Assembly (NCBI GenBank): GCA_003576845.1 | Contig: QEVJ01000050.1 | Location: forward strand, 1 to 64,000 | Length of the DNA: 64,000 nucleotides | Direction of reading: 5' to 3' | Source: Planctomycetota bacterium | Lineage (GTDB): Bacteria; Planctomycetota; Planctomycetia; Pirellulales; PLA5 | Shown here: positions 8,656 through 46,260 of the stretch, one piece after another | Position numbering within the stretch: position 1 is the stretch's first letter | Layout of the letters: each line of letters starts with the position of its first letter | Notes under the pieces: model-generated | What the model saw: the letters and a program-made list of their open reading frames with translations, nothing else | Databases searched by the model: none | Told to the model about the DNA's origin: nothing | Program-made: the position numbers and the translations under genes

Positions 8656-10743
8656 ATCAAACGGTCACTATCGACCGCAATAACGTCAACGAGATCTTCG
8701 CTCTGACGCTCGTTCGTCACGCCGGCGACATTCCAGCCCAGTACAACGATCTGACGTACTTCATCAGCCCCACAGCCGGCCGGACCGGCGTGGCGCAGAT
8801 GCGGCTGGCCGGCTTCGGCGATGAATATCTGTCGTCGCAATACGAGAATGGCGGCGACGGCGCCGCGTTCGAGAAGGAATTGACCTATATCCCGTCAACG
8901 ACGACCGGCGGTCCGGAAGGCTTCAAGATTCCCCAGCGCTATCGGCATCCGGTCGAACTCAACACGGACATCGCCGACTATGGCGACGACGAGGACGTCT
9001 ATCGGGTCCACTGGCTTACCGAAAACCATCGCGATGCCGACGACTACTCGCGAATTATCGACTTGAATCAAGCGTTCGGCCTCACCGGCGCCGCGCTCGA
9101 CGCCGCCACGAGCGAAATCATGGACGTCGACCAATGGCTGCGCGCATTTACCGTGCCGCGGATACTCGGAAACCGCGACTTCTACAGCCAGCCCGGCGGT
9201 CCGCCCGGAAGCTGGAATCACAATCTCATCGTCTACGTCCGGCCGTCCGACGACAAAGTGCTGGCCTTGCTTTGGGACATCGACGAGTCGTACCAGGAAC
9301 CAATCAACGGCTCGATCATCGGCGTGGTGAATTGGGCGAAAGTCGCGCAGCTTCCCGGCAATCTCCGCAAATACTACGCGCATTACCACGACCTGATCTC
9401 ATCGACGTTCAACGACGTCTACATGACCTATTGGGTGAACCACTATTCCGGCCTGGCTCCCGGCGTCGGTTTCAACGGGCCGAAGAGCTACATCGTCAAC
9501 CGCGGCAACTACATCCTGAGCCAACTTCCCGTCGAGATTCCGTTCGAAATCGTCACCAACGGCGGCGTCGACTTCGCCACGGACGAGAGCAGCGTGGTAC
9601 TCCAAGGCAATGCCTGGTACCGCGTGTATGACTTGTATCTCGCCGGGCGGCCGGAGCCGCTCGACGTCACGTGGATCGACGCCGACACCTGGCAAGTGGC
9701 CGTGCCGTTGCATCACGGCGCCAATACGCTGACGTTCCAGGGTTTCGATCTGTGGGGCAATCTCACCGGCGAAGACTCGATTGCGGTGTCGACCACGGCC
9801 GGCGTGCCTCCGCAAGAAGCGTTGCGAGTCGACGAGATCATGTACAATCCTGCCGGGGATGACGCCGCCGAGTTCATTGAAATCGTCAACGTAAACGGCC
9901 AATCGGTCGACCTTGCCGGCGTCCGCTTCGCTGCGGGCATCGACTTCGCGTTCACCTCGGGCAGCCTGGCCAGCGGCGAACGGATCGTCGTCGCCCGCGA
10001 CCCGGCCGCGTTCGCCGCTGCGTATCCGTGGGCGACGAACGTCGTCGGGCCGTTCTCGGGCGGAACGCAACTGGCAAACGACGGAGAGACGATCACCCTC
10101 GTCGACGGAGCGGGCGAGCTGATCCAGAGTTTCGCTTACGACGACGCCTGGTACGGCGAAACCGACGGCGGCGGGCGGGCGTTCGCTCGTTCGCCGCGAT
10201 CCGGCCGGCCCGCTCCATGATTGGAACGTCGCATCCGGTTGGCGCGCCAGCCGCGAATCGCACTCGCCGGGCGAGCGCGACCTGTTCGCCGGCGATGCCG
10301 ACGGCAACGACCGCGTCGATCTTGCCGATCTGGCCATCGTTCAACGGATGTTGGGAACGCCCGCCGGCGCGACGCGCAGCGAGGGCGATCTCAATCGCGA
10401 CGGCGCCGTGACGCGGAACGACGTCGCGCTCTTGGCGCTCAACTACGGGAGGTATGACCCCGACCAGGCGCCGCTTGCCGCCGCGGCTGCCGCAACGCTC
10501 GTGCAGCGCCCGCGTGTCGGCGGCGCAGAGGCCAATCGCCTCGCGGCCGGTCGTCGAACGACCGTCAAGCGCCGCAATGCCGCCGAGGTCGATGGACTTC
10601 TGGGCGATCCAACCGCGATGATCGCCATATCGTCGGCGTTGAAGGCCAAGCGTACGAAGACCACGTTGCGAGGACCGCGCCCAATGGCGGGCAACCATGA
10701 CGTCGCCCATCTCGTCCCGTGCAAGAACAGTTCGAACGAATAG
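8650..10743 (+). pseudogene. CotH-like/lamin-tail/dockerin secreted protein, 5' end missing and one frameshift
   Basis: Homology begins abruptly at GVHQTVTI (about 8649), in the middle of a CotH-kinase-like domain. The same position in the full-length paralogue at 52.2-57.8 kb reads GVHRSVTM. It continues through GFGDEYLSSQYENGGDG, IMDVDQWLRAFTV and VLALLWDIDES, then a lamin-tail domain (RVDEIMYNPAGDDAAEFIEI, GETITLVDGAGELIQSFAYDD). Near 10197 the frame shifts by one base and resumes DPAGPLHDWNVASGW, then a dockerin type I pair (GDADGNDRVDLADLAIVQ and GDLNRDGAVTRNDVALLALNYG) and a basic tail ending at 10743. No start codon or signal peptide precedes the homology. The gene is apparently the 3' two thirds of a large surface protein; the frameshift may be real or an error. 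Confidence 0.8.
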
Positions 10744-11126
10744 AGGGCAATTGCGAGCCGGCAGTAACTCACTCGCCACGCGACGGAGAATGGCATTGCG
10801 ATCGGTCGTGGGCAAGGACTCGATCGCGAAGTCTGATCTTCTCGACTGTCGCCCCGTGGGCTACGTCCAAGTCGACCAGCGCTTCGACGCGAGCGATGTG
10901 ACCGGTGCGGGCGAATAAGTTCCCGTCGCGGCCACGTATGAACGCGATCATGTTCGGAACCCTTCTGAACGAGATCCGCGTCTCTGCGCGACTTCATGCC
11001 GAATTTGATTCCCGATTCGGCGTCGCTTTGCGGTTCAGAAGGAACCAAAAGAAACGCCCACTACCGAAGTAGCGAGCGGATCATGACGTATAGCTAGTAA
11101 CGTGTCGATCGCCGATGCGCTATTTT
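10744..11126. other. Intergenic stretch without a recognisable gene
   Basis: These 383 bases hold only short open frames with no family features and no clear ribosome site. A minus-strand frame at 10769-10951 (MIAFIRGRDGNLFARTGHIARV) looks slightly protein-like but is not matched by neighbouring frames. No repeat, tRNA or strong hairpin was seen. Confidence 0.5.
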
Positions 11127-11378
11127 TCAGGAAACAGTCACAAGCTCGTTCGCGTCAAGTAGTTGGAGCGGCGTCGCGCGCAGCGCTTTGGCAACGCGCT
11201 CGACGATTTCGAGGGTCGGCGTATTGCGGCCACACTCGATTTGCGCGTAAGCCAACTGCGAAATACGTATTTTTGCCGCGATTTCGGCCTGCGTGAGTCT
11301 CATTACGGCGCGTCGCGATTTCACGTTTTTGATAAACCTCCGGTGCAAACGGCTGTCGATCTGGTAGGCCACGTACAT
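11127..11378 (-). CDS. Small XRE-family helix-turn-helix protein
   Basis: The 83-residue protein starts at ATG 11378. Residues about 22-76 form a Cro/C1-type HTH: MRLTQAEIAAKIRISQLAYAQIECGRNTPTLEIVERVAKALRATPLQLL, with the usual Q-A-E-I turn and the PTLEIVERVAKAL helix 4/5. Proteins this short are free-standing regulators or antitoxins. No toxin-like ORF lies beside it, and the flanking regions are empty apart from a tRNA gene 78 bases upstream on the same strand. Its target cannot be inferred. Confidence 0.8.
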   Translation of the reverse strand: MYVAYQIDSRLHRRFIKNVKSRRAVMRLTQAEIAAKIRISQLAYAQIECGRNTPTLEIVERVAKALRATPLQLLDANELVTVS

Positions 11379-11455
11379 TCATCCATTACGACGTATGCGC
11401 AATTAGACTACCACGGAGGCGATTGGACATAAACCGCCCCCCCCTTTTTTAAAAT

Positions 11456-11528
11456 GGGCGGCACAGGATTCGAACCTGTGACCTCCACGGTGTGAGCATG
11501 GCGCTCTAACCAACTGAGCTAGCCGCCC
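11456..11528 (-). tRNA. tRNA-Val (anticodon CAC)
   Basis: The minus strand folds into a full cloverleaf of 73 bases: acceptor GGGCGGC pairs with GCCGCCC, the D-arm is GCTCAGTTGGTTAGAGC, the anticodon stem CCATG/CGTGG encloses loop CTCACAC (anticodon CAC, reading GUG), and the T-arm is ACAGGTTCGAATCCTGT. CCA is not encoded. Confidence 0.96.
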
Positions 11529-11737
11529 TTGGACAATTCGGGCGATGGCTAATCGCCCGGAAAGCGGGTGGTCTCTTCCTTGTGCTCGTGCGACGCACCG
11601 CGCCGGACCGCCTCCCGCTCGCCGTTCAACCATAGCAATCGGCCGCACGGGTGTCCAGTGGCAAGCATTCGTCCGCGAGCCGCGGCGGGACGATCGCGTT
11701 ACTGCACCGCCCGGCGCGCCGCCGCGAGGTAGGACAC

Positions 11738-12469
11738 TTATTTTCGCTCGAAGGTTCCCATCACCTCGACCTTGAGCTTGCCCGAATTGTCGGCCGTTTT
11801 GATGTCGTAGATTCGGAACATCAGTTTGCCGGCGATGGAGGGCGTGAACTGTTTTTCGGCGCCGACCGAGAACGGCTGGAGAACGACGTCCTTCGTCCGG
11901 CCCGAGGCGTCTTTCTCCGGCGGAGGGACAACGACGCCGACGAGCGAGCCGACGTTACAGTCCTTTAATTGCTCGGACACCTGCAAGCCTTCGGGGCCGA
12001 CCTCCTGGTTGATCTTGCACGTCCATGTGCCGGTCGCGGTGATGGTGAGCAGCTTGCCGGGAACCGTGGTGATGCCCGTCTCTTGCCAGCCTTGGTTGGC
12101 GTGTACTTCGACGGATTTTTTGTCGGCCGTCTCCTCCTTCTCGCGAAACTGTTCGAGCTTGTCCTTGGCGGGCTTGTAGTTGGGGGCGAACTTCAGGATT
12201 TCGAGATAAACGCCGCGGGCTTGTTCGGTCTTTCCGGCCGCCTCGTAATCTTTCGCCAGTTTCTCGGCGTCGCGGACGAAATTCAGGTACAGGCCCATCA
12301 GCTTTTCGTCGGCGGGCAATTCGCCCTTGGCGGGGCCCTGGTTCTCCCGATTCGGCTGACGCGGACCCTGATTCGGCCGCGGCCGGTCCGGACGCTGGGC
12401 CAACGTCGCCGATACGAACGCCACGAGGCTCGCTACAACCACCGCCAGGACAAACGCTTTCGCCCGCAT
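11738..12469 (-). CDS. Secreted protein with helical-repeat region and lectin-like beta-sandwich
   Basis: The 243-residue protein starts at ATG 12469 with a classic signal peptide (MRAKAFVLAVVVASLVAFVSATLAQ). A Pro/Gln/Asn-rich linker follows (about 25-45), then a helical TPR-like stretch (LYLNFVRDAEKLAKDYEAAGKTEQARGVYLEILKFAPNYKPAKDKLEQF). The C-terminal domain (about 120-240), with GWQETGITTVPGKLLTITATGTWTC, GPEGL and GSLVGVV, resembles the PA-IL/LecA-like calcium-binding beta-sandwich often attached to planctomycete periplasmic proteins. It probably acts in the periplasm or at the surface; any ligand is unknown. No operon partner is evident. Confidence 0.7.
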   Translation of the reverse strand: MRAKAFVLAVVVASLVAFVSATLAQRPDRPRPNQGPRQPNRENQGPAKGELPADEKLMGLYLNFVRDAEKLAKDYEAAGKTEQARGVYLEILKFAPNYKPAKDKLEQFREKEETADKKSVEVHANQGWQETGITTVPGKLLTITATGTWTCKINQEVGPEGLQVSEQLKDCNVGSLVGVVVPPPEKDASGRTKDVVLQPFSVGAEKQFTPSIAGKLMFRIYDIKTADNSGKLKVEVMGTFERK

Positions 12470-12694: not shown

Positions 12695-15600
12695 CTACCG
12701 CCGCGAAAACGCTCCGGCCGCGCGTCGCCGCACTTCGGCATCGTCGTGGTTCTTGAGCCGTGTCACGCGCGCCGCTCCCAGCGTCTCCGCGCTCAGCCGT
12801 CCCGCGGCAACGCGTTCGAGCACATGCTTGGCCCGCTCCGAGTTGCGCAACAGGGCATCGAGCGCGAAGTTCCGATTGCCCGGCGACAGGTGGGGCACTG
12901 CGTCCAGGAGCGCCGTTGCCGCGGGCGGTTCGTCGATGTCGCCGGCGGCGCTCGCGGCGCCCATTGCCAACTCGTCGTCCACGCCTTTCGTCAAATACTT
13001 GGCGATCTGCGTTCCGCGGCTTGACCACGTATCGCAGCCGAGCATCCGTAAAGCGTCGTAGCGCGTGCCCTTGGCGATGCGCTCGTCGTCGGCCATTGCG
13101 GCGGCGAGTTCGATCGACCTCCGCCAGCGCGCGGCAAGCGCGGCGTCGTCGCCGAGGATCTCTTTCACTCGCGGCCACGGCCAAACTCCGGCCTGCGAAA
13201 TCCCGTTGACCACGCCACCGCCGATGACCACCGCCTGCCAGTCGCGGAGCGGTTCCTTGTCACCAGGCAGCGACGCTTCAAGCACCGCTTTCAACTGCCG
13301 CGCGTCGTTCTTGCGGCCGGTGGCAATCGACACGCGCCAGATCCACGGGATGCGGCGGTATTCCTCGGACTTCTCCCCAGCATCGGCGGGCAAGCCGTCG
13401 GCCAGGGCGGTAATCAATGCGGCCGCCCGTTCGACGTTTTCCGCGACGAGCCGCTCGCGCTCGGCGGCGGGCGTTTTGTCGTCGAGGACGAGTGCGGCGA
13501 TTTCCTTTACCGGCCGCGCCGCCGCGGTTTGCGCCAACGTCGTTCGGGGTTTCCCCTCGGGCGGAACGAGTTGGAGCGTGCGCAAATCGACGAGCGCGCC
13601 GCGAATGGGTCCGTCGCTGCGCACGAGGATCGTGCTCGTGCCCGCGGATAGCGAGAGTTCGCCGATGTTCGCGAGTCGATATCGGCTCCACGCGCCGGTA
13701 CCTGCGATTCGCGTGCGGAGCGGTTCGTCCGCCGACTCGACGAGCAGCGCATTCCCCGCCGCGCCGTCGTCGCAGGCGTATTCGAGAAACGCGAGGTAAC
13801 GTCCCGCGGCGGCAAGCTCGATCGTCCACGTAGCCGAGTCGTCGGCCGTATGCCACATGCCGAGGTTGCGGAATGGGCTCTCGAACGCGAGTTCCGGTCC
13901 GCGAATTTCGCAGTTCTCGGCCGACAGTTCCAATATCCCGGTCGCGTCGGGCCGAACGGTCACGGGCGCGTTTCCGGCGAACGCTTTCGGCGGCGCGGCG
14001 GCCGAGGCGAGAAACGCCAGCAGGTCGGCCATCTGTGCCGGCGTAATGTCGCGTTCCAACCCTTCGGGCATCAGCGATTTGCCGGTCGACTGAAACTGGT
14101 CGATCTCGGCGCGCAGGAGCGTGTGCTGTTTGCCGTCTTGGGCGGTAAGCACGACGCTCGTTGCGGTTTCATTCGTCAGCAACCCGCCGATCATCAGGCC
14201 GCCGTCGGTCAGCGCCTGGTAGCTAACGTAGCGCGGATCGACGGCCTGGTTCGGATCGAGGATTGCCGCGAGCAACGTTTGGCGAGGCTTCCCGGCAAGC
14301 GGCGCGAGGTCGGGTCCCACGGCGACGCCCAGGTTGCCGAGCCGATGGCACGTGGCGCACGTCTTGGCGAACACGGTTTGCCCGCGCGACGCCGCGCCGC
14401 CGGCCGCCGCGGCAGACGCGTATCGTTCGAGAATCTGCTTGCGGTCGGCGGTTGCGGATTGGCTCAGCAGCTTCGCAGCGCGAGAGCGCACCGACTCGTC
14501 GGCCGCTTCGAGCAATCTCTGGCGATGGGCCGCGTCAAAGTCGGTTGCAGCGATCGCCCCGCGTTCGAGCGCGTCGAGCAGGGCCGCTTGTCCGGCCGAT
14601 CGCGCGAGGAGCGCATCGAGTATCGCCGCGCGCACCACAGGCGAATGGCTCGACCAGCGATCGAGAAGCAGTTTCGGCGCATCGTCGCCGGCCACCGACG
14701 CCAGCTGCGCCACGGCGGCAAGTTGGATTTCGGCGCTTGCACGCGGCGACAGGAGTTCGGCGAGCAACGCGCGGTCGGCCGGGAGAGCGGGATCTTCGCC
14801 GATTCCCAGCGATCGCAACGCGGCAATTCGATCGCGTGCCTCCGCGTCTTCGGCCGCGACGAGCTTTCGCGCCGCGGCGAGCAGATCTGCAATGCGCCGT
14901 TCGTCTTCGGCGGCGAGCTCCTGCCTCTTCGTCGCGGCACTCCGCTGCCGAGCCGCGAGCAGTTGCGCCAGCACCGCGAACTGCCACTCGCGAGGCGGCC
15001 GCTCGCCGTCGGTTGCCGCTGCGTGCAACATCTCCACCCAAAACGCCGAGTCGCTTGCCGCGAAATCCATTGCGAGCAGCGCGGAGAGCAATTGCGAGGG
15101 CGGTTCTTGTCCCCGCGACGCCGACATCGCGAGCACGCGCCGAGCAAACGGCCGCACATTCTCCCGGCGCAGCGACGACATGGCGGCGGCGACGAGATAT
15201 GCGTCGTCGCGGCGCGCCGTAGCCAGCGTCGCGAGCGCCGTTGCCGCTTCCTCGCCGGGGAACTCGCCGAGCGTGTACGCCAATTGCAACCGGACCTGGT
15301 CGTCGGCATCGCCGGTCATCGCGCTGAGTTTGGCGAGCGGACTGCCCGGCGTCTCGGCGAAACGTTCGGCGAGACGAATCGCGTGGCGGCGCACGCCGGC
15401 GTGCTCATCGGAGAGGGCGCGCTCGACCGTTCCTGGGGCGAGCGCATCCAAACCGTCGAGCGCACAGAGCGCCTGCAAGCGCGCCTGCGCTCGCCGGCTT
15501 TCTCGGGTGAGGCGTTCGAGCTGCGGCGCGACCGTGCGATCGCCCAGATCCACGAGCATTCGCTGGGCCAAATCGCGCTGTGGCCCGTTGGGCGAATCGA

Positions 15601-18307
15601 GCGCTGCAACCAACCCCGCGGCGTCCAGCTTATCGAGTCGGACGATCGGCCGCGGGCGGCGGTTTTTCGGATAGACGCGGTAGATTCGCCCCAGCGCGTC
15701 GCCGGCGCGCACGTCGAGGGCCGCCACGACGTCCGGCGGTATCCAGATCGGGTGTTCGATCACGTAGCGGTACATATCGACGACGTACAGCGCGCCGTCC
15801 GGACCGGTCCGCGCTTGCACGGGGCGGAACCAGTTGTCGCTCGACGCGAGAAACTCGGATTGTTGTTCTTCGGACGCGCGGCGGCCGCGGAACGTCGTCC
15901 CACGCGGCGACAGGACGAGACGATGCACGACCTGACACACCGGTTCGCACGTGAAGGCATTGCCGGCGAACTCCTCGCCCAGCAGTTCGTCGCGATAGAT
16001 GCCCAAGCCGCACGCGGCGGTAACGGACCCCGGCGGGCCGGACAGCTTGAACGTCACGAGCGGTGAAATCGGAAAGAGCCGGTTCGCGTTGGGGTCGTCC
16101 GCCACGTTGACGGCCGTCGCCGGCGGCGCAAACTGCGGATTGCGGCCGACGTACCGATCGACGACCGGATAGTGGCGGATCAACGTCCCGCTGTCGCAGC
16201 CGAACCAGTTGCCCCAATCGTCGCGGACGCGGCTCTGCTGCGTCTGGCCCGTCACCGGTTCGATCTCGCCGGTGTCGGGTTTCATGCGAAAATCGCGGCT
16301 GGTAAGGTCGATTTGCTGGCCCGCGAACCCGGTGATCTTGCCGCCGAACAGGCCGGTCGAAGCGTAAACCCAATTGTCGAGACCATATTGGAGACTGTTC
16401 ACGCGGGCCTGATAGTTATGCGTGGCAAAACCCGTGAAGAGCTTCTCGACGATGTCGGCTTTACCGTCGCCGTTGGTGTCTTCCGCATACAGTATGTCCG
16501 GCGCGGTACAGACGAGCACACCTTTGCGCCAGACCGTCACGCCGGTCGGAAACGGGATTCCGTCGAGAAAAGTCGCCGCGCGGTCGTAGCGGCCGTCGCC
16601 GTCCGTATCGGTAAGCACTTTGACGCGCCCGCCGGGCGCGTACTTGCCGTCGACACCCATCGGATAGTCGTGCATTTCGGCCACCCAGAGCCGGCCGTCC
16701 GCGCCGAAGTCGATCGCGACGGGATCGACGACGAGCGGTTCGGCGGCGACGAGTTCGACGGTCATTTCGGGCCGCGTGCGGATCGCCGCGAGCGACTCGA
16801 GCGGCGAGCGGGGCGACGTGCCGCCCGTCTTTGTCGCGTCGTGCGCGGCGTCGTACGCATCCGGGGTCGTCTCGTGGACCGCGTCGACGATCTTCTGTTC
16901 CAAACCGGGCACGAATCGCGACGGCATGTCGAAATAGATCATCGAGTCGCCGCCTTCGTAGCCGCCTTCGCGCAGCACGCGCTCCGACGGGATGTAGCAG
17001 GGATACTCGTTCGAATAGCCGTGAATCCAGACCCGCGAGCGGTCGAGTTCGCGTTTGAGCCGCAGCGAATAATCGACGACGACCTCGCCGGCCAAGAACA
17101 CCATCGCCAGATCGTCGCCGAACGTCCACGTTTGCACGGGATAGTCGACTTTCGTCGGCAGCGCCTCGCCGCGGTCGAGACGGGCGAGTTGCGTCTTCGC
17201 GTGGTGCGCGATCCAGCCATTCGCGTCGGCCGCGCGGCGCTGCCATTCTTCGCGTTTTGGCGCCGGAGCGAGCGGCAAGTCGATCCGTTTGTAATGCACG
17301 TCGACGCGGCCCGCGATCGATCGCGCGGGGAGCGCGGAGAGCCGCTTGACTTCTTCGCCGATCTCGCGGCCTTGGGCCATCGCTTTCTCGCCGTCGCCGT
17401 TCGTTACGCCGGAGTTTGGATTCTGATCCGCGCCGCAGCCGATCGACACCATCGCCACCGCGCCGGGGAACAGCTTCTCGATGGTCTCGGCGGCGTATCC
17501 GGCCCAATCGCCGCTGATTTTGTTGTGGCCAAACGTCACGCAGTGGCAGGCGTAGCTCGTGTAGACCGCCCGCGGCTTGCCGTCCAGATCGCGAACGAAC
17601 AGCACGGGCAGATCGTGGTCGATGACACTGCCGCCGCGGCGATTCTGGGCGAACGTCGCCCGGCCGACGCTCCACGAGAGCCGCGCGCGAGCCCGCGCGT
17701 CGAACGCTTTGGTCGCCGCCTCTTCGAGCCAGCCGGCCATCTGCTCGGTGTACTTGTCGATGTGGGCTTGATGTTCCGGCGGGATGGGCACGCCGAAGAG
17801 CGTGGCCGCCGCGCCGCGGAGCATCGGGGCCGTATGCGTGTGCGTGTAGGTAATGGTCAGCCGCTGGGGATCGAGCCCCAGCTTCTCGTGAAGACGCTTG
17901 CCGACTTGCCGCGACATCCAGTCGGGCACGCCGAGGTTGTCGACGGTCATCAAAACGGCGGCCGACTTCGCGTCGTCGCCGATCGCCAGGGCCTTGACCC
18001 AAATCTTGTGCGTCACCCCGTCGGATTCCGCCCGCCGCCCGCCGAAGCCGCTCAGCCGCACCGGATAATCGGGGGTGGCGTCGATCGCGGCGACGCCGAC
18101 CATTGCTTCGCTCGCTTTGGGATCGGTCGTGAGCTTGGGCGGCGCGGCCGGTGCTTGCGGTTTGGATGCCGTGCGAGCGGCGTCTTGTGCAGCGTCCTCC
18201 CCGCGTGCAAGACCGGTCATGATTGGGATTGCGGCGCATACCAGCGCCAGCACGACGCGACGCGCAATGCAAGCCACAGAACCTACGCCGTTGCGATCGA
18301 CCGACAT
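12695..18307 (-). CDS. Neutral ceramidase-like domain fused to PVC-type membrane-bound dehydrogenase with HEAT repeats and cytochrome c
   Basis: The 1870-residue protein starts at ATG 18307 (GGGAG ribosome site) with a signal peptide. Residues about 65-480 resemble neutral/alkaline ceramidases (VGVAAIDATPDYPVRLSGFGG, TITYTHTHTAPML, GCGADQNPNS), which hydrolyse ceramide-like amides using zinc. Residues about 505-890 are the PVC-type beta-propeller (MTVELVAAEPLVVDPVAIDF, GRLWVAEMHDYPMG). Residues about 890-1280 are HEAT-like repeats. A haem site CATCH lies at about 1315 in the PVC-type c-haem region (AILDPNQAVDPRYVSYQALT). A carbohydrate-binding-like beta domain (about 1460-1570) and a further helical region follow. 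The redox half is a standard planctomycete architecture; its fusion to a ceramidase half is unusual. The frame is intact throughout. The substrate is unknown. Confidence 0.85.
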   Translation of the reverse strand: MSVDRNGVGSVACIARRVVLALVCAAIPIMTGLARGEDAAQDAARTASKPQAPAAPPKLTTDPKASEAMVGVAAIDATPDYPVRLSGFGGRRAESDGVTHKIWVKALAIGDDAKSAAVLMTVDNLGVPDWMSRQVGKRLHEKLGLDPQRLTITYTHTHTAPMLRGAAATLFGVPIPPEHQAHIDKYTEQMAGWLEEAATKAFDARARARLSWSVGRATFAQNRRGGSVIDHDLPVLFVRDLDGKPRAVYTSYACHCVTFGHNKISGDWAGYAAETIEKLFPGAVAMVSIGCGADQNPNSGVTNGDGEKAMAQGREIGEEVKRLSALPARSIAGRVDVHYKRIDLPLAPAPKREEWQRRAADANGWIAHHAKTQLARLDRGEALPTKVDYPVQTWTFGDDLAMVFLAGEVVVDYSLRLKRELDRSRVWIHGYSNEYPCYIPSERVLREGGYEGGDSMIYFDMPSRFVPGLEQKIVDAVHETTPDAYDAAHDATKTGGTSPRSPLESLAAIRTRPEMTVELVAAEPLVVDPVAIDFGADGRLWVAEMHDYPMGVDGKYAPGGRVKVLTDTDGDGRYDRAATFLDGIPFPTGVTVWRKGVLVCTAPDILYAEDTNGDGKADIVEKLFTGFATHNYQARVNSLQYGLDNWVYASTGLFGGKITGFAGQQIDLTSRDFRMKPDTGEIEPVTGQTQQSRVRDDWGNWFGCDSGTLIRHYPVVDRYVGRNPQFAPPATAVNVADDPNANRLFPISPLVTFKLSGPPGSVTAACGLGIYRDELLGEEFAGNAFTCEPVCQVVHRLVLSPRGTTFRGRRASEEQQSEFLASSDNWFRPVQARTGPDGALYVVDMYRYVIEHPIWIPPDVVAALDVRAGDALGRIYRVYPKNRRPRPIVRLDKLDAAGLVAALDSPNGPQRDLAQRMLVDLGDRTVAPQLERLTRESRRAQARLQALCALDGLDALAPGTVERALSDEHAGVRRHAIRLAERFAETPGSPLAKLSAMTGDADDQVRLQLAYTLGEFPGEEAATALATLATARRDDAYLVAAAMSSLRRENVRPFARRVLAMSASRGQEPPSQLLSALLAMDFAASDSAFWVEMLHAAATDGERPPREWQFAVLAQLLAARQRSAATKRQELAAEDERRIADLLAAARKLVAAEDAEARDRIAALRSLGIGEDPALPADRALLAELLSPRASAEIQLAAVAQLASVAGDDAPKLLLDRWSSHSPVVRAAILDALLARSAGQAALLDALERGAIAATDFDAAHRQRLLEAADESVRSRAAKLLSQSATADRKQILERYASAAAAGGAASRGQTVFAKTCATCHRLGNLGVAVGPDLAPLAGKPRQTLLAAILDPNQAVDPRYVSYQALTDGGLMIGGLLTNETATSVVLTAQDGKQHTLLRAEIDQFQSTGKSLMPEGLERDITPAQMADLLAFLASAAAPPKAFAGNAPVTVRPDATGILELSAENCEIRGPELAFESPFRNLGMWHTADDSATWTIELAAAGRYLAFLEYACDDGAAGNALLVESADEPLRTRIAGTGAWSRYRLANIGELSLSAGTSTILVRSDGPIRGALVDLRTLQLVPPEGKPRTTLAQTAAARPVKEIAALVLDDKTPAAERERLVAENVERAAALITALADGLPADAGEKSEEYRRIPWIWRVSIATGRKNDARQLKAVLEASLPGDKEPLRDWQAVVIGGGVVNGISQAGVWPWPRVKEILGDDAALAARWRRSIELAAAMADDERIAKGTRYDALRMLGCDTWSSRGTQIAKYLTKGVDDELAMGAASAAGDIDEPPAATALLDAVPHLSPGNRNFALDALLRNSERAKHVLERVAAGRLSAETLGAARVTRLKNHDDAEVRRRAAGAFSRR

Positions 18308-18448
18308 GGAGATTGCTCCCGAAGGATCAGGAATTGCGCGGCGCACGACGATTCGTTGCCGGCCGTTCACGCGACTAAAGCCGCAGACGGGGCGCCGCGT
18401 GCACAATCGTAGTATACCGACAACGTGCTTTGTCCGCGCGCCGCTACG

Positions 18449-21400
18449 CTAACGAATCGCAGCGCGCGCTAATGCCCGCCGCGTTGCCGCAGGCGCCTCG
18501 TGCGAGAGCGCGTCGGCCAGAACCGCGTCGGCGCCACGCGGCGACAGCGCCTTCGCCTTCCGCCGCGCCACGAGCGTCGTCGGGCGAATCGCGGCGGTTA
18601 CGACGGCCTCCGGCGCTTGCAGCGGAGCGGCGGGCGCCGGAAGGCGGCCGAAGTTCGACGCGACGATCGCCAGGTCCGCTCGGTCCACGTCGCCGTCGCC
18701 GTCCAAGTCGCCGTCCGTCCACGCGGCGTCGACCAGCTTGCCGAAATTGCGCTGCACAGCGGCGATGTCCGCAAGTCCAACGGCGCCGTCGAGATTTACG
18801 TCGCCGGGCACGGTCAGCGTCAGCGTGCCGTCGATGTACGTGAACGAAAAGCCGCCGTCGCTCGCCGGACCCGACAGATCGAGCAGCGTCGTGCCGGCGG
18901 CCGATGCAAGCGAGTTGAAGTGCATGTCCACGAGCGTCGCCGCGCCCGCCGTGCCCGGTTGCGCCGAGAACGCCGCCAGGTACGCGACGCCGCCGGAGTC
19001 GTCGACGTTTTGCACGAGGCTCCAGCCGGCGGCCTCCAACTCGGCGGCCAGCGTGACTTGCTCGTTGGCGAGGTCGAGCGGACCCGTTTCGTAGTTGACC
19101 CGCAAGGTCACGCCGAACAGGCCGTCGAGGTCGTCGACCGTCACGGGGACGTGCGCCGACGCGCCCGCTTGCGCAAAGACCGCGGCCGGCACGCCGATCG
19201 CCGGATCGACGGCCGCCGGCGAAGGCGCGGGCAAGTTCGGCGGGAGGTCCGGAATCTCGGGCCGCGGCAGGAACACGGCTTTTTGTGCGACGTAAGCCGC
19301 GTCGAGCCCGCTGAGCGAACCCGTGCCCGACGAGTTGCCGATGACGACCGGATCGACGAGCGGGAAGGCGTCGAAGCCCGTGTCGAAGCCGACGACGACC
19401 CGCGAGATGAACGCGGCGTCGAAAGCCGTGTATGCGAAGTTCCCGTCGACGTCGGCGAGGAAGGCGACCTTGTGGAGCGCGGCATCGGCGATCGACGCGA
19501 TCAGCCCACCGTTGACCCGCACGTTTTCGAGCCGCACGATCTGGGCGTCGCCGATGGCTGCGGCGGTGGGGACCGTCGCGGCGATCCGCAGCACGTCGAC
19601 CGGTCCGGCCGAGAGCGCCGTTACGCCCGAAGCGGTCACCCGCGCGCGGCCGGGCTGCGTCAGGTTCGCGGTCACGGTCCAATTCGTCGGGACGCCCGCC
19701 GCCCGCGCGATCGACGAGATGTTCAACAGCGCCGGGTCGTAGACGACGTCCAAGTCGACGCTCAACACGCCCGAACCGTCGCTGAGGCGAACCGGCATTC
19801 CCGTCGACGTATTCGGCACGTGGACTGCTTGCGTCGGGCCGCGGGCAAAGTCGGGCAAGCTCACGACCCGCGCGTTTGCCGACGCCACCGTAAATGTATT
19901 CTCGTAATCGCCGCCGGGCGAAAAGTCGCCGTCGCCGTCGAGCAGATTGCCCGCCGTATCGACGAACCCCGACGCGCGGCTCGACAACCGCACGCGATAG
20001 GTGTCGGCCGCCAGCGGCGCTCCGGTCTTGATGAATGTGAATTGCGTGTAGGCCGCATTCCAAACGAGCGAACCCGCAACCGGACCGACCGCGTCGCCGA
20101 CGAGCGTCGCGTCGGCCGGCTCGACTTCCGCGTCGGGACCGTCGTAGAGATTGACGGAGCTCGCGTCCACCGGGCGGTCGAACGTCACGACGAATCCGGT
20201 GCTCGTCGGCGCGAGGCTGCTGACGAGGAACGTCGGCTCGACGATCACTTGGAACAAGTCCACGCCGACGCCGCCGTCGTCGTCCGTGACGCGAACCTGG
20301 ACCGCCTTCGTGCCGGGCGTGGCGTATTGCAATTCGAGCGTAAACGTGTTGTCGGCGGCGAGCGCGAGCGGCACGAAGCCGCCGCCGTCGCCGTAGTCGA
20401 CTTCGGCGGTCCACGCGTCGTCGCCGGGGTCGTCGAACGAGCCGCCGCGGACGACCGTTGTGCCGGGGTCCGTCGTTACGTCTTCGCCGGCGTCGACGCT
20501 CGGGGCGACGTTGTTTACCGTCACCGCGTGAACCGCCCCGACGTGAACGCCGTCGTCGTCGACCAAACCGTCGTTCCAATCGACGCGCCACTCGGACACC
20601 GTGTCGGCGCCGGAATCGGCGACGGGGCCGACCGCTAGCGAGTACGCCGCTCCTTCGTCGATGGCCGCATCGCCGGCAAGCGCCACGGTCGGAGAAGCAT
20701 TCGCCACGGTGGCAAAGAACGACCGCACGGACGTTTGCCCCGTCGGGTCCGTCAGCCGCACGACGACGTGGTACTGCCCGTCGTCGGCGTAGGTGTGCTG
20801 GCCGTCCAAGGAGCCGAAGCCAATCGCACTTATTGGAGCAAGTGGGTCGAGAGCGATGCTAAGCGTCTTCCAAGTGCCGGGAATATTGAGGGCCAGGATG
20901 TCCTCGATACCCGAGCCGTTAAGATTAGAGCGCTGAATGTGCGTAGCAGTACTCCAATAGAGCTTTGAGTTCGTTGAATCTAGCTCGATATCGAACGCGC
21001 GAACATTCTGAAAGAACGTCCCTATGTTGTCGCCAGATAGGTCGCCGCGACCGAGCAACGGAGTCGTGCGTCCAATGTTGCTGGCCGTGAAATAAAACTG
21101 GGCGTTCGCTGAGTCGAACGCGATGTGGACACTCGAGTAGGTCACATCGAGCTTCTTGAGTTGCTGGTCGTTAGCGCCAGTTCCAGCGTCCATTCGTCGA
21201 ATACTATCGGCGTTTGTGTAGTATACGAGCCCTGACTGCACATCCACCTCAATGTCGTGTGTGTACTGCAAGCCAAGATCAACGATCGTACGTATATTTG
21301 TTCCGTCCAAGTTGGCTACCTGGATCCCGCGTTGATGGTCTCCAAAGTACAATTCACCGCGGGACGGGGATACCGCGAAGCCATAGATATCAGCAGTGGA

Positions 21401-24400
21401 TACTTGCGGCCCTTCAACAATGTATTCCAAGTCACTCCCATCGTAGTTGCTACGCCAAATCATTCCCGAACCATTTCGCGTGCCGTAATAATAAAGCTTT
21501 CGGGCCGTTCTATCGACGTCAATGAATGCTTCATTTCCAACGCCCGCAGGGCGAACGTACACCGCGTGCATGTTTGACCCGTCGAGATTTGCGCGATAAA
21601 CGCTCCCGTCGTTATCGAAGAAAACGGCTCCCTCGCCAGACGTGAGCGACACAGAACCGTTGTCGGGATTTGTGCCGTCGCCCCAGTCGATCGAATAGGT
21701 GTAGTTACCCAAGTCGAAATCGGCGAAGGTTGCCAGGTCGACGGCGACGAGCGGCGTTCCTTCGGTCGCGATCGCGGTCGCGGATAGCTTGGCAAAGACG
21801 ACGTCCCAGCCGCCGGCATGGTTGGCGGCGAGACTTCCTTGCGAGATGGCGGCGAGATAGACGTTTCCCGCGGCGTCGACGGCGGCGCCCCAGGGCAAAT
21901 CGCTGGCCTGCGTGCCGAATTGGAGCACGGATTGCCGCGTGCCGGCGGTGTCGTAGCGGGCAAGAAACAGGTCGTTGACGCCGAGGTTCGGGCGGCCGAA
22001 ATTCCCCGCAGTGAACCCAGCGACGATGACGTTGCCCTCGGCGTCAACCGCCAGGCCGCGCTGCTGATCGGCGGCGCTGGTTCCGTCTTGAACCGCCCAG
22101 AGCAGTGTCCCTTGCGGGTCGAACTTGTGGACGTGAAAGTCGCTTCCGCCGCGGTTGGGTCCTGCGAGACTGCCGCTAGTCGTGCCGGTGGTGTACACGT
22201 TTCCGTTGGCATCGAGCCGGACGTTGTGCCCGATTTCGTCCGCGCTCGTGCCGAGTTGTCGGGTCCAGACGCGATTTCCCTCGCGGTCGTAGCGGGCGAC
22301 GAACGCATCGAGCGCGCCGGCATTCTGCGCGGCGAGATCGCCGTTGGTCACGCCGCCGCCGTAGACATTTCCCGCCGCATCGACCGCAACGGACAAGAAG
22401 CTATCGTTGTCGCCGGTCGTGCCGAGGATTCTGGTCCAGAGCAAGTTTCCATCGGTATCGTATTTCGCGATGTAACCATCCGTGCCGGCAAGGTTCGTTC
22501 CTCCCAAGTCGCCGTTCGTGCCGCCGACGATGTATGCGTTGCCGTCCGCGTCGAGCGCCAAGCCGCGGTTCACGTCGAGGGCGGGAGAGCCTAATTGCTG
22601 GGACCAGATGAGTTGGCCGTCGGCGGTGTACTTGCTCAGGAAAGCGTCGGTCTGGCCCGCGTTTGGCCCGCCGAGGCTGCCGATCGTGTCGCCGGACACA
22701 AACACGTTCCCGTCGGCGTCGACGGCCACGCCGCGGGCCACGTCGCCTTCGGGCGTGCCGAACTGGATCGTCCATAGGCGATTGCCGGCAGGATCGATCT
22801 TGCCCAGGATCACGTCGTTCGAGCCGAGATTCGCCACCACGAGATCGCCCTGCGTGTAGCCGGCGAAGTACGAGTTGCCCGCCGCGTCGATTGCCATCGC
22901 GCGGCCTTCCTCGTTTGCGGACGTGCCGAACTGCTGGATCCAACCGGCGTTTATCTGGGGGTTGAGCGTCACGGTCGGCGGCCCGCTGCGGACGGTGACG
23001 GTAAACGAGTCCGTTCCGACGCCGCCGTCGTCGTCGGCAACGCGGACTGTCACGGTGTGCGATCCGGGCGCCGGGTAATCGTGATTCAGGGTAAACTGCT
23101 TGTTGGCGGCCAGCGCGAGCGGTGCGAAACCGGCCCCGTCGCCGTAATCGACTTCGGCCGTCCACGTGTCGCTGCCCGGATCGGCAAACGTGCCCGTGCG
23201 CGTCAAGGCCGCGCCGGCGTCGATCGTCGTGGCGTTTCCCGCGTCGACGATCGGGGCCACGTTGGCGACGCTTACCGATTGCGTCGCTGCGAGATGCGAG
23301 CCGTCCTCGTCGACGAGCGTCACTTGAACGAGCCGTTCCTCGGGACCGTCGGCGAACACGTGCGCGATCGTTCCCGGCGGCGATGTGAACACGTCGATGG
23401 GCGAGCCGTCGTTCCAGTCGATGCGCCACTGGCTGACCGTGTCCGATCCCGGGTCTACGACTGCGCCAAGCGTGAGTTGATACGCCGTCCCTTCGTTGAC
23501 GTTCGCCGCGCCGGAAACAGCGAGCGTCGGCGCTACGTTGCCGACGGTCACCTGGAAGGGACGCGAACTCGAAGCGCCGGAGGGATCGGTCACCCTCAGG
23601 GTCGCCGTGTACACGCCGTCGTCCGCATAGGTGTGCGAACCGCCGGCGACGCCGCGAAGGATCGCGCCCGCGCTTACGTCCGAAACGTACAACAGCGAGT
23701 CGGCGATCGCCGGACCGGTCTCGCCCGGCAGGACCAGCGTGATGTCGTCGATGCCGAAACCGTCCGTGGTCGTTTGATTGCGAAGGACCGTGAAGCGGAT
23801 GAACGGATTGCTCGGATCGACCAGGCCGTAGTAAGCGACGCTGCCGTCGTTGTTGTTGCCGGGCGTCGGACTGGCCATCGTGGGCAGTAAGCGGCGGATC
23901 GTCGTCGATCCGTCGGCGAGCACGAACTCGACGGTGATATTTCCTGGATTTTCGGCGTCGGTCACGTAGAAGCCGACGCCGATCTGCGGCTGTGCGAAGT
24001 CGATCGAGAACACGGGACCGATCGGCCCCGCGTCGACGAACAGCATTTTGTCGCCGGTCGTCGGAAACGCGCCGTTGAGCGTGCCGGTCGGCTGCGCGCG
24101 AATCGACTGCCCGGCGGAGAGGACCGCGGTTTGCCCGCCGAGATTCAAGAACCTCGGGATTAGGATCGTGCCGGTCGGCAGATTCTCGAACGACTCGGTC
24201 GCCGTGCCGTTCGCGGCCAATCCCACGAGCGCGTTGCGCGCGCTGTCGGCGTTGGGATGGGGAATTCGGCTGGCCGTGCCGCCGCCCGAGAGATTCGTGC
24301 GATTGAGGTCTTCGCCGAATGTCTCGCCGCGGCGGACGTCGCCGGCCGTCGCGGGCGATCCGTCGCCCCAGTCGATCGTGTACGCATACTCGCCGCCGTC

Positions 24401-27400
24401 ACGGTCGATGAACGTTGCGATCTCGGCGATCGCGAGCGGCAGGCCCTCGGTCGCGGTGCGGTCGTCGATTGCCGACAACACGGGCGGCACGCCCGTTACC
24501 GTCACTTGAAAACTTGCGGACCCGAGTCCGCCCTCGTCGTCGCGGACGCGCACCGTGACCGTAAACGTTCCGGTGGCGAGGTAGACGTGCACTGCGTCGA
24601 GCGAGCCTTGCGTGGCCACGCCGGGGGCGCCGGGGACGTCGATCGTCGGTACGCCGGCGTCGAGCGGCGATCCGTCGCCCCAGTCGATCGTGTACATAAA
24701 CGTTTCCGAGCTTGGCGGCGAAACGCTCGTGCTCGAAAATCCCGGATCTGAAAACGTGGCGATGTCGGAGATCGACAGCGCGATGCCTTGGAGGGCGGCT
24801 TGATTGCCGACGGCCGTCACTTGCGGGGCGACGTTGGTGATGGACACGGTGCGGAGTTGCGTGCTCGAACCCGCATCGTCGTCGACGAGCGTGACGACGA
24901 TTCCGTAGGAACCGCCGTCGGCATAACGATGCGACGCCTGAAACTCGCCGGTCGTGGGCACGCCCGGACCGCCGGGCGTAACGGTCACGACGGGCAGAAC
25001 GACCGGCAGCGTGCCGTCGCCCCAGTTGATCCAATAGGAGAACGTCTCCCGCGTCGGGCCGTTGGGGTGCGTGGGATTGTCGTAGCCGGGGTCTAAGACG
25101 GTTGCGGAGAGCGTCACGAGGCTTCCTTCCGAAGCGGCGGAGGGCGTGTTCAAGATGACCGCGGGCGCGATGTTCGTCACGTTCACGGGGAACTGGGTCG
25201 AACGGGTGCCGCCGTCGTCGTCGGTCACCGTCACGCTGACCGTGTAGACGCCGTTGTCGGCGTAATGATGCGTCGCCGGAATGATTCCTTGCGTCGCGAC
25301 TCCGGGCGAACCGGCGACGGTTACGGTCGCCGCGCCGCTCGACGGAGCGGAGTTGTCGCCCCAATCGACTTGATACGTGAACGTCTCCGTCGTCGCGCCG
25401 CCGGGCATAGACGGGTTGTCGAAGCCCGGATCGGTAAATGCGATTCCGGCCAGCGAGTAGAGCGCGCCTTCGGCCGCCTGTTGGAAACCGATCGAGCCGA
25501 ACACGGGCGCGGCGTTGCCGACGCCGAACGTCGTGCCTCCCGTCGCCGTGCGTTCCGGCGACTGCTGGTCGACGAGCGTGAGCGACACCGAGTACGAACC
25601 GTTGTCGGCGTAGACGTGCGTCGGCCGGACGCTGGACGTTGCCGCGCCGAGCGCGATTTGTTCGAGGCTGCCGTCGCCCCAGTCGATGGTGAGCGTGTGC
25701 GCGTGGCCGTAGTTCTGGAACGTGACGTCGAAGGCGCTTGCCTGGCCTTCCGGCGCTGCCGCGACGTTCGCGACGGCAAGCGCCAGGTCGTTGAACTGTC
25801 CGCCGAACAAGACGTAACCGCGGCCCGCGTTCGAGCGTCCCGCGGGATCGGCGTAGTATGCGCCGACGATCACGTCGTCAAAACCATCGCCGTTCACGTC
25901 GCCCGCGCCGGCGACGGACGAGCCCGCCAGATCGTTGGCCGCCGCGCCTTGGATGGTCAGGCCATTGAGGCCGTCGACGGTTTCGAGGCTTTGCTCGGCG
26001 GCAAAACCGCCGGCCTTGCCGAAGACGAGATAAGCCTCGCCGGCGTCGGTGCGGCCGAGCGGATCGCCGCGGACCGCGCCGAGGATGAGGTCGTCGAAGC
26101 CGTCGCCATTCACGTCGCCCGCGCCGTCGACCGAACGTCCCGCGCGATCGGCCGGGTCGATGCCGACGAGCGCGAACCCGTTCGTCCCATTCAGGCTCGA
26201 AAGCTCCATCTGGGCGGGAAACGCGCCGCCGTGTCCGAACACGACGTAAACCTCGCCGACGCGGACCTCTCCCGGCTCGGAATGGTCCCACGCGCCGATG
26301 ATCAGGTCGTCGTAGCCGTCGCCGTTGATGTCGCCGCCGCGACCGACGGCTCGGCCCGCGGCGTCGCTCGCCGCGATGCCGTTGAGGGCGAAGCCATTCG
26401 CGCCGTCGAGGCTGCTGAGGTTGAGTTGGGGCGCAAATCCGCTCGCTTTGCCGAACACGACGTAGGCCCGGCCCGCCTGATCGCGTCCGCCGGGGTCGGC
26501 GCGATAGGCGCCGATCAGGATGTCGTCGAAGCCGTCTCCGTTGACGTCGCCGGCGCTCGACAGCGACGCGCCGGCATAGTCGCCGATCGCCGCGCCGTTG
26601 ATGACGAAGCCGTTGGCGCCGGTGAGCGACGCCAGCGTAACGAGCGTGCCGAAGCCGGTCGTCCGCCCAAACACGACGTAAGCCTGGCCGCTACGAACGT
26701 TGCCGTTCGGGCTTGCCTCGGGCGCACCGACGAGCACGTCGCCGATGCCGTCGCCATTCACGTCGCCCGCGGCGCTCACGGCCCAGCCGGCCTTGTCGAA
26801 GGCCGCCGCGCCGCGAATCTGAAACCCGACGGAAGACCCCATCGAGGCGAGGTCGATCACCGACGGGAACGCCGTGGTGCGGCCGAAGACGACGTAGGCT
26901 TGTCCCACCTGGTCGAGCCCTGCGGTCTGGGCCGTGTCGAACGAGCCGAGGATCAGATCGTCGACGCCGTCGCCGTTGACGTCGCCGGCCGTGCGGACGG
27001 AAAAGCCGGAGCGGTCGAACGCTTCCGCGCCGCGAATGCGAAAGCCGTTGGTTCCATTGAGCGCGGCGGCGTCGACGCTGGCGGGAATTCCGCTCGCCGC
27101 GCCGAACACGACGTAGGTCTCTCCCGATTGCGTGCGTCCGGCGATCGTGGCATTGTGCGCGCCGACGACGACGTCGGCGAAGCCATCGTTGTTGACATCG
27201 CCCGCCGGACCGACGGAATACCCGGCGAAAGCGTTGGCCGCGGCGCCGTCGATGGCGAAGCCGAGATTGCCGAGATTGGCAAGGTCGATCGTGGGGCCGA
27301 CGACGGCCAGCAATTGCCGACTCTCAAGGTGTTCGAGCGAGAGCCGAGTCCTTCGTAGCTCCGAATGTGAATGCAACCTTGTCCTGCGTGTCCTGCGTTG

Positions 27401-27418
27401 CGTCGTGGCGAGGTCCAT
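18449..27418 (-). CDS. Giant FG-GAP / PKD / SBBP beta-propeller / dockerin surface protein
   Basis: The 2989-residue protein opens with a basic segment and an LEPR-XLL-like export motif (LEHLESRQLLAVV). In order it carries seven FG-GAP repeats (about 45-530, each with a calcium-type DVNGDGxDD loop), several PKD domains (IDWGDGS ... HTYADDGVY), an SBBP-type propeller (about 1490-1885, repeats of VDAAGNVYxxG), a YWTD/LDL-receptor-like propeller (about 1910-2200), more PKD/Cadherin-like domains, a cohesin-like region and a dockerin pair (GDVNLDGAVGLADIAAVQ, GDLDGDGDVDRADLAIVASNFG). A 60-residue tail follows. Two of the PKD domains are interrupted by other domains. It is a likely cell-surface adhesin or binding scaffold, about 300 kDa, with no catalytic site seen. 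Confidence 0.88.
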   Translation of the reverse strand: MDLATTQRRTRRTRLHSHSELRRTRLSLEHLESRQLLAVVGPTIDLANLGNLGFAIDGAAANAFAGYSVGPAGDVNNDGFADVVVGAHNATIAGRTQSGETYVVFGAASGIPASVDAAALNGTNGFRIRGAEAFDRSGFSVRTAGDVNGDGVDDLILGSFDTAQTAGLDQVGQAYVVFGRTTAFPSVIDLASMGSSVGFQIRGAAAFDKAGWAVSAAGDVNGDGIGDVLVGAPEASPNGNVRSGQAYVVFGRTTGFGTLVTLASLTGANGFVINGAAIGDYAGASLSSAGDVNGDGFDDILIGAYRADPGGRDQAGRAYVVFGKASGFAPQLNLSSLDGANGFALNGIAASDAAGRAVGRGGDINGDGYDDLIIGAWDHSEPGEVRVGEVYVVFGHGGAFPAQMELSSLNGTNGFALVGIDPADRAGRSVDGAGDVNGDGFDDLILGAVRGDPLGRTDAGEAYLVFGKAGGFAAEQSLETVDGLNGLTIQGAAANDLAGSSVAGAGDVNGDGFDDVIVGAYYADPAGRSNAGRGYVLFGGQFNDLALAVANVAAAPEGQASAFDVTFQNYGHAHTLTIDWGDGSLEQIALGAATSSVRPTHVYADNGSYSVSLTLVDQQSPERTATGGTTFGVGNAAPVFGSIGFQQAAEGALYSLAGIAFTDPGFDNPSMPGGATTETFTYQVDWGDNSAPSSGAATVTVAGSPGVATQGIIPATHHYADNGVYTVSVTVTDDDGGTRSTQFPVNVTNIAPAVILNTPSAASEGSLVTLSATVLDPGYDNPTHPNGPTRETFSYWINWGDGTLPVVLPVVTVTPGGPGVPTTGEFQASHRYADGGSYGIVVTLVDDDAGSSTQLRTVSITNVAPQVTAVGNQAALQGIALSISDIATFSDPGFSSTSVSPPSSETFMYTIDWGDGSPLDAGVPTIDVPGAPGVATQGSLDAVHVYLATGTFTVTVRVRDDEGGLGSASFQVTVTGVPPVLSAIDDRTATEGLPLAIAEIATFIDRDGGEYAYTIDWGDGSPATAGDVRRGETFGEDLNRTNLSGGGTASRIPHPNADSARNALVGLAANGTATESFENLPTGTILIPRFLNLGGQTAVLSAGQSIRAQPTGTLNGAFPTTGDKMLFVDAGPIGPVFSIDFAQPQIGVGFYVTDAENPGNITVEFVLADGSTTIRRLLPTMASPTPGNNNDGSVAYYGLVDPSNPFIRFTVLRNQTTTDGFGIDDITLVLPGETGPAIADSLLYVSDVSAGAILRGVAGGSHTYADDGVYTATLRVTDPSGASSSRPFQVTVGNVAPTLAVSGAANVNEGTAYQLTLGAVVDPGSDTVSQWRIDWNDGSPIDVFTSPPGTIAHVFADGPEERLVQVTLVDEDGSHLAATQSVSVANVAPIVDAGNATTIDAGAALTRTGTFADPGSDTWTAEVDYGDGAGFAPLALAANKQFTLNHDYPAPGSHTVTVRVADDDGGVGTDSFTVTVRSGPPTVTLNPQINAGWIQQFGTSANEEGRAMAIDAAGNSYFAGYTQGDLVVANLGSNDVILGKIDPAGNRLWTIQFGTPEGDVARGVAVDADGNVFVSGDTIGSLGGPNAGQTDAFLSKYTADGQLIWSQQLGSPALDVNRGLALDADGNAYIVGGTNGDLGGTNLAGTDGYIAKYDTDGNLLWTRILGTTGDNDSFLSVAVDAAGNVYGGGVTNGDLAAQNAGALDAFVARYDREGNRVWTRQLGTSADEIGHNVRLDANGNVYTTGTTSGSLAGPNRGGSDFHVHKFDPQGTLLWAVQDGTSAADQQRGLAVDAEGNVIVAGFTAGNFGRPNLGVNDLFLARYDTAGTRQSVLQFGTQASDLPWGAAVDAAGNVYLAAISQGSLAANHAGGWDVVFAKLSATAIATEGTPLVAVDLATFADFDLGNYTYSIDWGDGTNPDNGSVSLTSGEGAVFFDNDGSVYRANLDGSNMHAVYVRPAGVGNEAFIDVDRTARKLYYYGTRNGSGMIWRSNYDGSDLEYIVEGPQVSTADIYGFAVSPSRGELYFGDHQRGIQVANLDGTNIRTIVDLGLQYTHDIEVDVQSGLVYYTNADSIRRMDAGTGANDQQLKKLDVTYSSVHIAFDSANAQFYFTASNIGRTTPLLGRGDLSGDNIGTFFQNVRAFDIELDSTNSKLYWSTATHIQRSNLNGSGIEDILALNIPGTWKTLSIALDPLAPISAIGFGSLDGQHTYADDGQYHVVVRLTDPTGQTSVRSFFATVANASPTVALAGDAAIDEGAAYSLAVGPVADSGADTVSEWRVDWNDGLVDDDGVHVGAVHAVTVNNVAPSVDAGEDVTTDPGTTVVRGGSFDDPGDDAWTAEVDYGDGGGFVPLALAADNTFTLELQYATPGTKAVQVRVTDDDGGVGVDLFQVIVEPTFLVSSLAPTSTGFVVTFDRPVDASSVNLYDGPDAEVEPADATLVGDAVGPVAGSLVWNAAYTQFTFIKTGAPLAADTYRVRLSSRASGFVDTAGNLLDGDGDFSPGGDYENTFTVASANARVVSLPDFARGPTQAVHVPNTSTGMPVRLSDGSGVLSVDLDVVYDPALLNISSIARAAGVPTNWTVTANLTQPGRARVTASGVTALSAGPVDVLRIAATVPTAAAIGDAQIVRLENVRVNGGLIASIADAALHKVAFLADVDGNFAYTAFDAAFISRVVVGFDTGFDAFPLVDPVVIGNSSGTGSLSGLDAAYVAQKAVFLPRPEIPDLPPNLPAPSPAAVDPAIGVPAAVFAQAGASAHVPVTVDDLDGLFGVTLRVNYETGPLDLANEQVTLAAELEAAGWSLVQNVDDSGGVAYLAAFSAQPGTAGAATLVDMHFNSLASAAGTTLLDLSGPASDGGFSFTYIDGTLTLTVPGDVNLDGAVGLADIAAVQRNFGKLVDAAWTDGDLDGDGDVDRADLAIVASNFGRLPAPAAPLQAPEAVVTAAIRPTTLVARRKAKALSPRGADAVLADALSHEAPAATRRALARAAIR

Positions 27419-44121: not shown

Positions 44122-44125
44122 GAGG

Positions 44126-46257: not shown

Positions 46258-46260
46258 ACG

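What the first reader, a model, noticed from the sequence alone, without database searches (positions are those of the whole stretch)
20815..21690. A YWTD-type beta-propeller of lower GC is inserted inside a PKD domain
The PKD start YTYSIDWGDGTNPDNGSV is separated from its end DGQHTYADDGQYHVVVRL by about 290 residues that form a six-bladed YWTD-like propeller (VYRANLDGSN, IWRSNYDGSD, LYFGDHQRGIQVANLDGTN, LYWSTATHIQRSNLNGSG). The DNA of the insert is visibly AT-richer (about 50 % GC) than the 62 to 65 % around it. This points to recent acquisition of a whole domain into a loop of another domain with the frame preserved.
Basis: partly seen in the sequence, partly recalled or inferred. Interest (0 to 1): 0.65.

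Follow-up and report, generated by a model that had tools for sequence, protein, structure and literature searches.

The report
Propeller domain grafted into PKD loop
One giant secreted planctomycete protein carries a complete LDL-receptor-like six-bladed propeller spliced in frame into a loop of another domain; a sister species has the same gene with that loop empty, so this looks like evolution caught in the act of grafting a probable binding module onto a surface protein.

Summary
In a 2,989-aa exported protein (window 18449-27418, minus strand) a six-bladed YWTD propeller (aa 1922-2201, window 20816-21655) interrupts a PKD domain in frame. Its synonymous GC3 is 0.58, against 0.83 expected from host codon usage (z = -11). 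An unsupervised GC3 change point (aa 1916-2199) matches the domain borders within six codons. AlphaFold gives an LRP4/LRP6-like propeller (Z about 33). Decisive test: the only congener held has the same protein with an intact PKD; the joined PKD halves align to it with one main gap, 16 residues. So the propeller was most likely inserted in this lineage. Its age is bounded only by the genus split (53% of four-fold sites differ); no close donor was found. The event is not isolated: the ortholog pair differs by several more domain-sized insertions, while four other giant ortholog pairs show none internally. Free-standing, mostly PEP-CTERM-tailed secreted proteins are among the best homologs of three of the four inserts searched, with homology ending at or just before the PEP motif. 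Likely function (inferred): "split-domain" display of a ligand-binding module on an adhesin-like scaffold, as in RTX adhesins. New variant of a known kind.

The parts
18449..27418 (-). Host gene: 2,989-aa giant exported protein (planctomycete export motif, FG-GAP propeller, PKD array, SBBP propeller, cohesin-like, dockerin)
   Evidence: ORF and translation; Pfam PKD_4 9 stretches, FG-GAP 7, SBBP 5, cohesin, dockerin I; Planc_extracel sub-threshold
20816..21655 (-). Insert 1: six-bladed YWTD beta-propeller, aa 1922-2201
   Evidence: Alignment with the empty ortholog PKD; phmmer to LRP4/2/6; AF2 propeller pLDDT about 90 and Z 32.8 to LRP4; GC3 change point aa 1916-2199 = window 20822-21673
21656..21781 (-). 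N-terminal half of the split PKD (aa 1880-1921, ...NYTYSIDWGDGTNPDNG)
   Evidence: Aligns residue by residue with the intact congener PKD
20699..20815 (-). C-terminal half of the split PKD (aa 2202-2240, GSLDGQHTYADDGQYHVVVRLTDPTG...)
   Evidence: Aligns residue by residue with the intact congener PKD
23648..24337 (-). Insert 2: about 230-aa domain (aa 1028-1257) at the equivalent loop of another PKD; host-like GC3 (about 0.85)
   Evidence: Sequence and GC3 profile; corresponding PKD in the congener is intact; only homolog among 58 genomes is a PEP-CTERM protein; fold not obtained
24338..24472 (-). N-terminal half of the second split PKD
   Evidence: Sequence comparison with other PKD repeats
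23519..23647 (-). C-terminal half of the second split PKD
   Evidence: Sequence comparison with other PKD repeats
25784..27289 (-). FG-GAP (integrin-type) propeller region; in the congener two domains are inserted between its repeats
   Evidence: Pfam FG-GAP; comparison with L055
21785..22951 (-). SBBP propeller lying between PKD domains, shared with the congener
   Evidence: Pfam SBBP; shared with L055
19529..19798 (-). Cohesin-like domain
   Evidence: Pfam Cohesin E 1e-8
18659..18808 (-). Dockerin type I
   Evidence: Pfam Dockerin_1 E 3e-5, above cut-off

Best explanation
A complete YWTD beta-propeller was inserted in frame into the surface loop of a PKD domain of a giant exported protein, after this species split from its congener. 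The donor was most likely a secreted propeller gene of a lower-GC bacterium; the inserted stretch corresponds to the mature domain of free-standing secreted propeller proteins, without signal peptide and PEP-CTERM tail. Because the first and last strands of a closed propeller lie close together, the PKD can still close around it and the propeller should bud sideways from the rod-like scaffold. Shown: nesting, in-frame insertion, absence from the ortholog, deviating synonymous composition, propeller fold. Inferred: horizontal donor, lateral display (a 'split domain'; about 0.6), and a role in binding an extracellular protein or glycan on an adhesin-like surface protein (about 0.5).
For: Intact PKD in the congener's ortholog; joined halves align to it with one main gap of 16 aa. 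Flanking C-terminal block 75% identical, within the 62-80% range of four other giant ortholog pairs. Synonymous GC3 z = -11.2 and a change point at the domain borders. A second nested YWTD domain in the same genome (G000:C269) shows no comparable GC3 dip, so the dip is not a property of the fold. The four free-standing relatives in alignment A1 all carry a PEP-CTERM motif directly after the region matched by the insert. AF2 propeller. Published analogue: ligand-binding domains budding from Ig-like split domains in RTX adhesins (PMC12077191, PMC10865825).
Against: No close donor sequence found (best about 39% identity over half the domain), so transfer is not proven and the composition could be an unusual native segment. 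The ortholog is not syntenic: the neighbour's ortholog lies on another contig in the congener. Only one congener is held. The PKD halves are low-confidence in the AF2 model (pLDDT about 50-67), so refolding around the insert is not shown. No ligand or phenotype.
Confidence: 0.78

Rival explanations
1. The insert is ancestral and was lost from the congener, with the PKD loop restored (deletion or conversion from a neighbouring PKD repeat).
For: The congener has another PKD with a similar loop (GLATIDVPGGGGALVRGSFDGSHTYADDG) that could serve as template.
Against: The two congener loops differ in many codons, so no recent conversion; a clean restoration is less parsimonious; low GC3 at exactly the insert borders fits a later arrival.
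Confidence: 0.08
2. Assembly chimera: a fragment of another organism's propeller gene joined into the contig of this draft genome (289 contigs).
For: Draft assembly; composition shift at both borders.
Against: Two joins would both have to fall in frame and at the domain borders, inside one PKD loop; 2,989-aa frame without stops; comparable nested domains occur independently in other genomes and the congener's ortholog has its own inserts.
Confidence: 0.03
3. Native segment: the propeller was duplicated or moved within the genome into the PKD and its low GC3 reflects drift or relaxed codon selection, not foreign origin.
For: Other YWTD genes exist in this genome.
Against: Best in-genome copy is about 35% identical; the other propeller genes examined there have ORF GC3 of about 0.72-0.74.
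Confidence: 0.11

Closest known systems
Split Ig-like domains of RTX adhesins (MpIBP, FrhA, AhLap)
   Same: A ligand-binding domain is inserted within an Ig-like fold and projects sideways from a long repeat rod (PMC12077191, PMC10865825).
   Different: Here the host is a PKD domain in a planctomycete giant protein, the guest is a YWTD propeller, and the insertion is visible as an evolutionary event between congeners; RTX/T1SS features were not looked for; ligand unknown.
Integrin alpha-I domain inserted in the FG-GAP propeller
   Same: A whole domain inserted in a beta-propeller protein, described as a later acquisition in chordates (abstract of PMC12422189); the congener's ortholog here has two domains inserted between FG-GAP repeats.
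   Different: Different guests; bacterial; in the window's species the FG-GAP part has no insert.
LDL-receptor-family YWTD propellers (LRP4, LRP6, LDLR, nidogen)
   Same: Six blades, YWTD-like motifs, fold match Z about 30-33, rmsd about 2 A over about 250 residues.
   Different: No EGF module follows; about 20% identity; nested in a PKD.
Free-standing PEP-CTERM YWTD proteins of planctomycetes
   Same: Among the best sequence homologs, same mature-domain extent.
   Different: They are whole small genes with an N-terminal leader and PEP-CTERM tail; the insert has neither.

Membership tests
YWTD (LDL receptor class B) beta-propeller | Sequence homology to YWTD repeats | tested here: met
   phmmer E 1.8e-33 to LRP4; Pfam PF00058 19.1 bits, below its cut-off of 21
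YWTD (LDL receptor class B) beta-propeller | Closed six-bladed propeller fold | tested here: met
   AF2 pLDDT about 90 over the propeller; Z 32.8, 248 residues, rmsd 2.0 to LRP4 3v64
PKD domain (host) | Complete PKD sequence once the insert is set aside | tested here: met
   Joined halves align over the whole PKD with the intact ortholog; one 16-aa gap plus a single-residue gap
Adhesin 'split domain' display | Guest domain emerges from within an Ig-like host domain | tested here: met
   Sequence nesting
Adhesin 'split domain' display | Host fold closes around the guest and projects it | tested here: inconclusive
   PKD halves at pLDDT about 50-67 in the model
Adhesin 'split domain' display | Guest binds a ligand and mediates adhesion | not testable with these tools
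   Needs binding assays
Horizontally acquired segment | Absent from the closest relative, deviating composition | tested here: met
Horizontally acquired segment | Identifiable donor lineage | tested here: inconclusive
   No homolog above about 40% in 398 class genomes, two GTDB pattern scans, plasmids or phages; the donor may be unsampled

The most novel reading that the evidence does not exclude
Mature domains of PEP-CTERM-sorted secreted proteins form a transferable pool that is repeatedly grafted into loops of Ig-like, PKD, GEVED and FG-GAP domains of giant planctomycete surface proteins, so that a few 'platform' genes exchange binding modules between closely related species while other giant genes stay colinear.
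Probability: 0.3. Interest if true: 0.65.

Novelty: new variant of a known kind. Interest (0 to 1): 0.52.

Why it matters
How nested domain architectures arise is usually inferred from deep comparisons. Here filled and empty states of the same site exist in two species of one genus, with sharp compositional borders, which makes the step from free-standing module to nested module directly testable. It also suggests how planctomycete giant proteins gain binding specificities, and gives a criterion (an interrupted PKD or cadherin-like repeat) for finding candidate ligand-binding modules in them.

Tried and rejected
Strict PKD motif scans found DWGDG only in this gene in both congeners, so no other interrupted PKD of this strict type was seen there. 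A search for flanking direct or inverted repeats showed no target-site duplication or mobile-element signature; the 10-bp repeat TGCTGGCCGT at 20796 recurs at 21079 inside the insert and was taken as chance. Phages gave no match and plasmids only matches of 30% identity or less. The six-row alignment was too diverse for a GTDB scan. PKD rows from the window misaligned and were dropped before folding. Insert 2 could not be folded from a single sequence (pLDDT 34). G007 and G011 proteins share the C-terminal part but carry no counterpart of the split PKD that I could recognise, so they do not serve as outgroup. One of the two FG-GAP inserts of the congener had no homolog in 58 relatives. The MAFFT alignment of the ortholog pair forces unrelated inserts onto each other in places, so its gap list understates the events.

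Full report
Observation. The minus-strand ORF 18449-27418 encodes 2,989 aa: a planctomycete-type export motif (below Pfam's cut-off), seven FG-GAP stretches, PKD domains, an SBBP propeller, a cohesin-like domain and a dockerin. In the PKD that begins IATEGTPLVAVDLATFADFDLGNYTYSIDWGDG, 280 residues (aa 1922-2201, window 20816-21655) stand between DNG and GSLDGQHTYADDG. They form six YWTD-like blades. Pfam sees them only below threshold, but phmmer against PDB sequences gives LRP4, LRP2 and LRP6 (E down to 1.8e-33), and the AF2 model of the PKD-propeller-PKD unit, made with 29 related sequences, has a propeller at pLDDT about 90 that aligns to LRP4 with Z 32.8, rmsd 2.0 over 248 residues.

Composition. 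GC of the insert is 0.525; 840-bp windows over the whole 64 kb average 0.643 (sd 0.032) and the lowest overlaps the insert. With the host gene's own codon usage and the insert's residues, GC3 should be 0.83; it is 0.58 (z = -11.2). A two-border change-point search on GC3 alone returned aa 1916-2199, within six codons of the borders that homology gives. Using all three codon positions the left border moves to aa 1900 and the right one stays. Two controls argue that this is not a property of the fold: a YWTD propeller nested in a cadherin-like domain of another protein of the same genome (G000:C269) and one nested in a GEVED domain of a distant relative (G374:C3) show no comparable dip.

Filled and empty site. 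The only congener held (G001) has one protein of this kind (open frame 3,568 aa, cut by the contig end). Its C-terminal block is 75% identical, within the 62-80% range of four other giant ortholog pairs. At the site in question the congener has an uninterrupted PKD. The two window flanks, joined, align with it end to end; the main gap is 16 residues (LATIDVSGGGQNTLQQ; there is also a single-residue gap near the start), so the propeller replaced a short loop. The intact loop resembles the loop of another PKD of the congener protein, so the empty state is most likely ancestral. Four-fold sites of the flanking block differ at 53%, so the insertion is younger than a fairly deep within-genus split; nothing dates it more tightly. 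The gene is not in the same neighbourhood in the two species.

Not an isolated event. The window protein has a second insert (aa 1028-1257) at the same loop of another PKD, with host-like GC3; the corresponding congener PKD is intact. Conversely the congener has two domains inserted between FG-GAP repeats (one with lowered GC3, 0.63), an extra SBBP propeller between PKDs and an extra N-terminal domain. Which of these are gains and which are losses is not polarised except for the two PKD loops. Four other giant ortholog pairs of the two species have no internal insertion above 32 residues, so this gene is unusually labile rather than typical. This contrast rests on five pairs, chosen because their C-terminal parts matched the query; it was not a random sample.

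Sources of the inserts. For the propeller, the two strongest relatives are the nested propeller of G374 and a free-standing protein of G002; the four free-standing relatives in alignment A1 are matched over the mature domain and carry the PEP-CTERM motif directly after it. The only relative of insert 2 among 58 genomes is a PEP-CTERM protein. Of the three relatives of the congener's first FG-GAP insert, G022's is a PEP-CTERM protein, G039's locus holds PEP-tailed proteins, and G012's shows no PEP motif. The congener's second FG-GAP insert has no relative there. PEP-CTERM proteins seem common in these genomes and I did not measure the rate expected by chance, so the pattern is suggestive only. 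None of the relatives is close, so no donor is identified.

Nesting elsewhere. By reading the sequences, YWTD propellers also interrupt cadherin-like repeats in G000:C269 and G004:C61 and a GEVED domain in G374:C3, while in G014, G347 and G405 they lie beside or between domains. These assignments were made by eye from repeat consensus, without a profile search.

Function. Published work on RTX adhesins describes ligand-binding domains that emerge from Ig-like split domains and are thereby projected from the adhesin axis, with N and C termini on one side (PMC12077191, PMC10865825). A closed propeller also has adjacent termini (established fold knowledge). I therefore infer that the PKD acts as a split domain that presents the propeller. 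[quoted passage not shown] Ligand and adhesion were not testable here.

Literature scope. Six searches of the open-access library found no report of such an insertion in planctomycetes; this is absence in that library, not proof of novelty.

Noticed in passing
23648-24337 (-): Second nested domain in the same protein, at the equivalent PKD loop, with normal GC; its only relative found is a PEP-CTERM protein.
   Followed up: partly
L055 (G001:C713), aa 222-455 and 523-821 of the 3,568-aa frame: The congener's ortholog has two different domains inserted between FG-GAP repeats, reminiscent of the integrin alpha-I insertion.
   Followed up: partly
L070 (G000:C269:1-14000): Another giant protein (or several frames of one, possibly broken by a frameshift) in which LamG-like, jelly-roll-like and propeller segments interrupt cadherin-like repeats.
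   Followed up: partly
10561-11880, 43621-45000 and 45061-46650: Other stretches of the window with 840-bp GC below 0.58.
   Followed up: no
12695-18406 (-): Neighbouring ORF of up to 1,903 aa that reads like a hydrolase-type N-terminal part followed by a propeller-like part and a CxxCH (haem-type) segment; its ortholog lies on a different contig in the congener.
   Followed up: partly
L147 (CAMCUD010000021.1): A YWTD propeller on a contig labelled Bifidobacterium breve MAG; possibly a mislabelled or contaminated bin.
   Followed up: no
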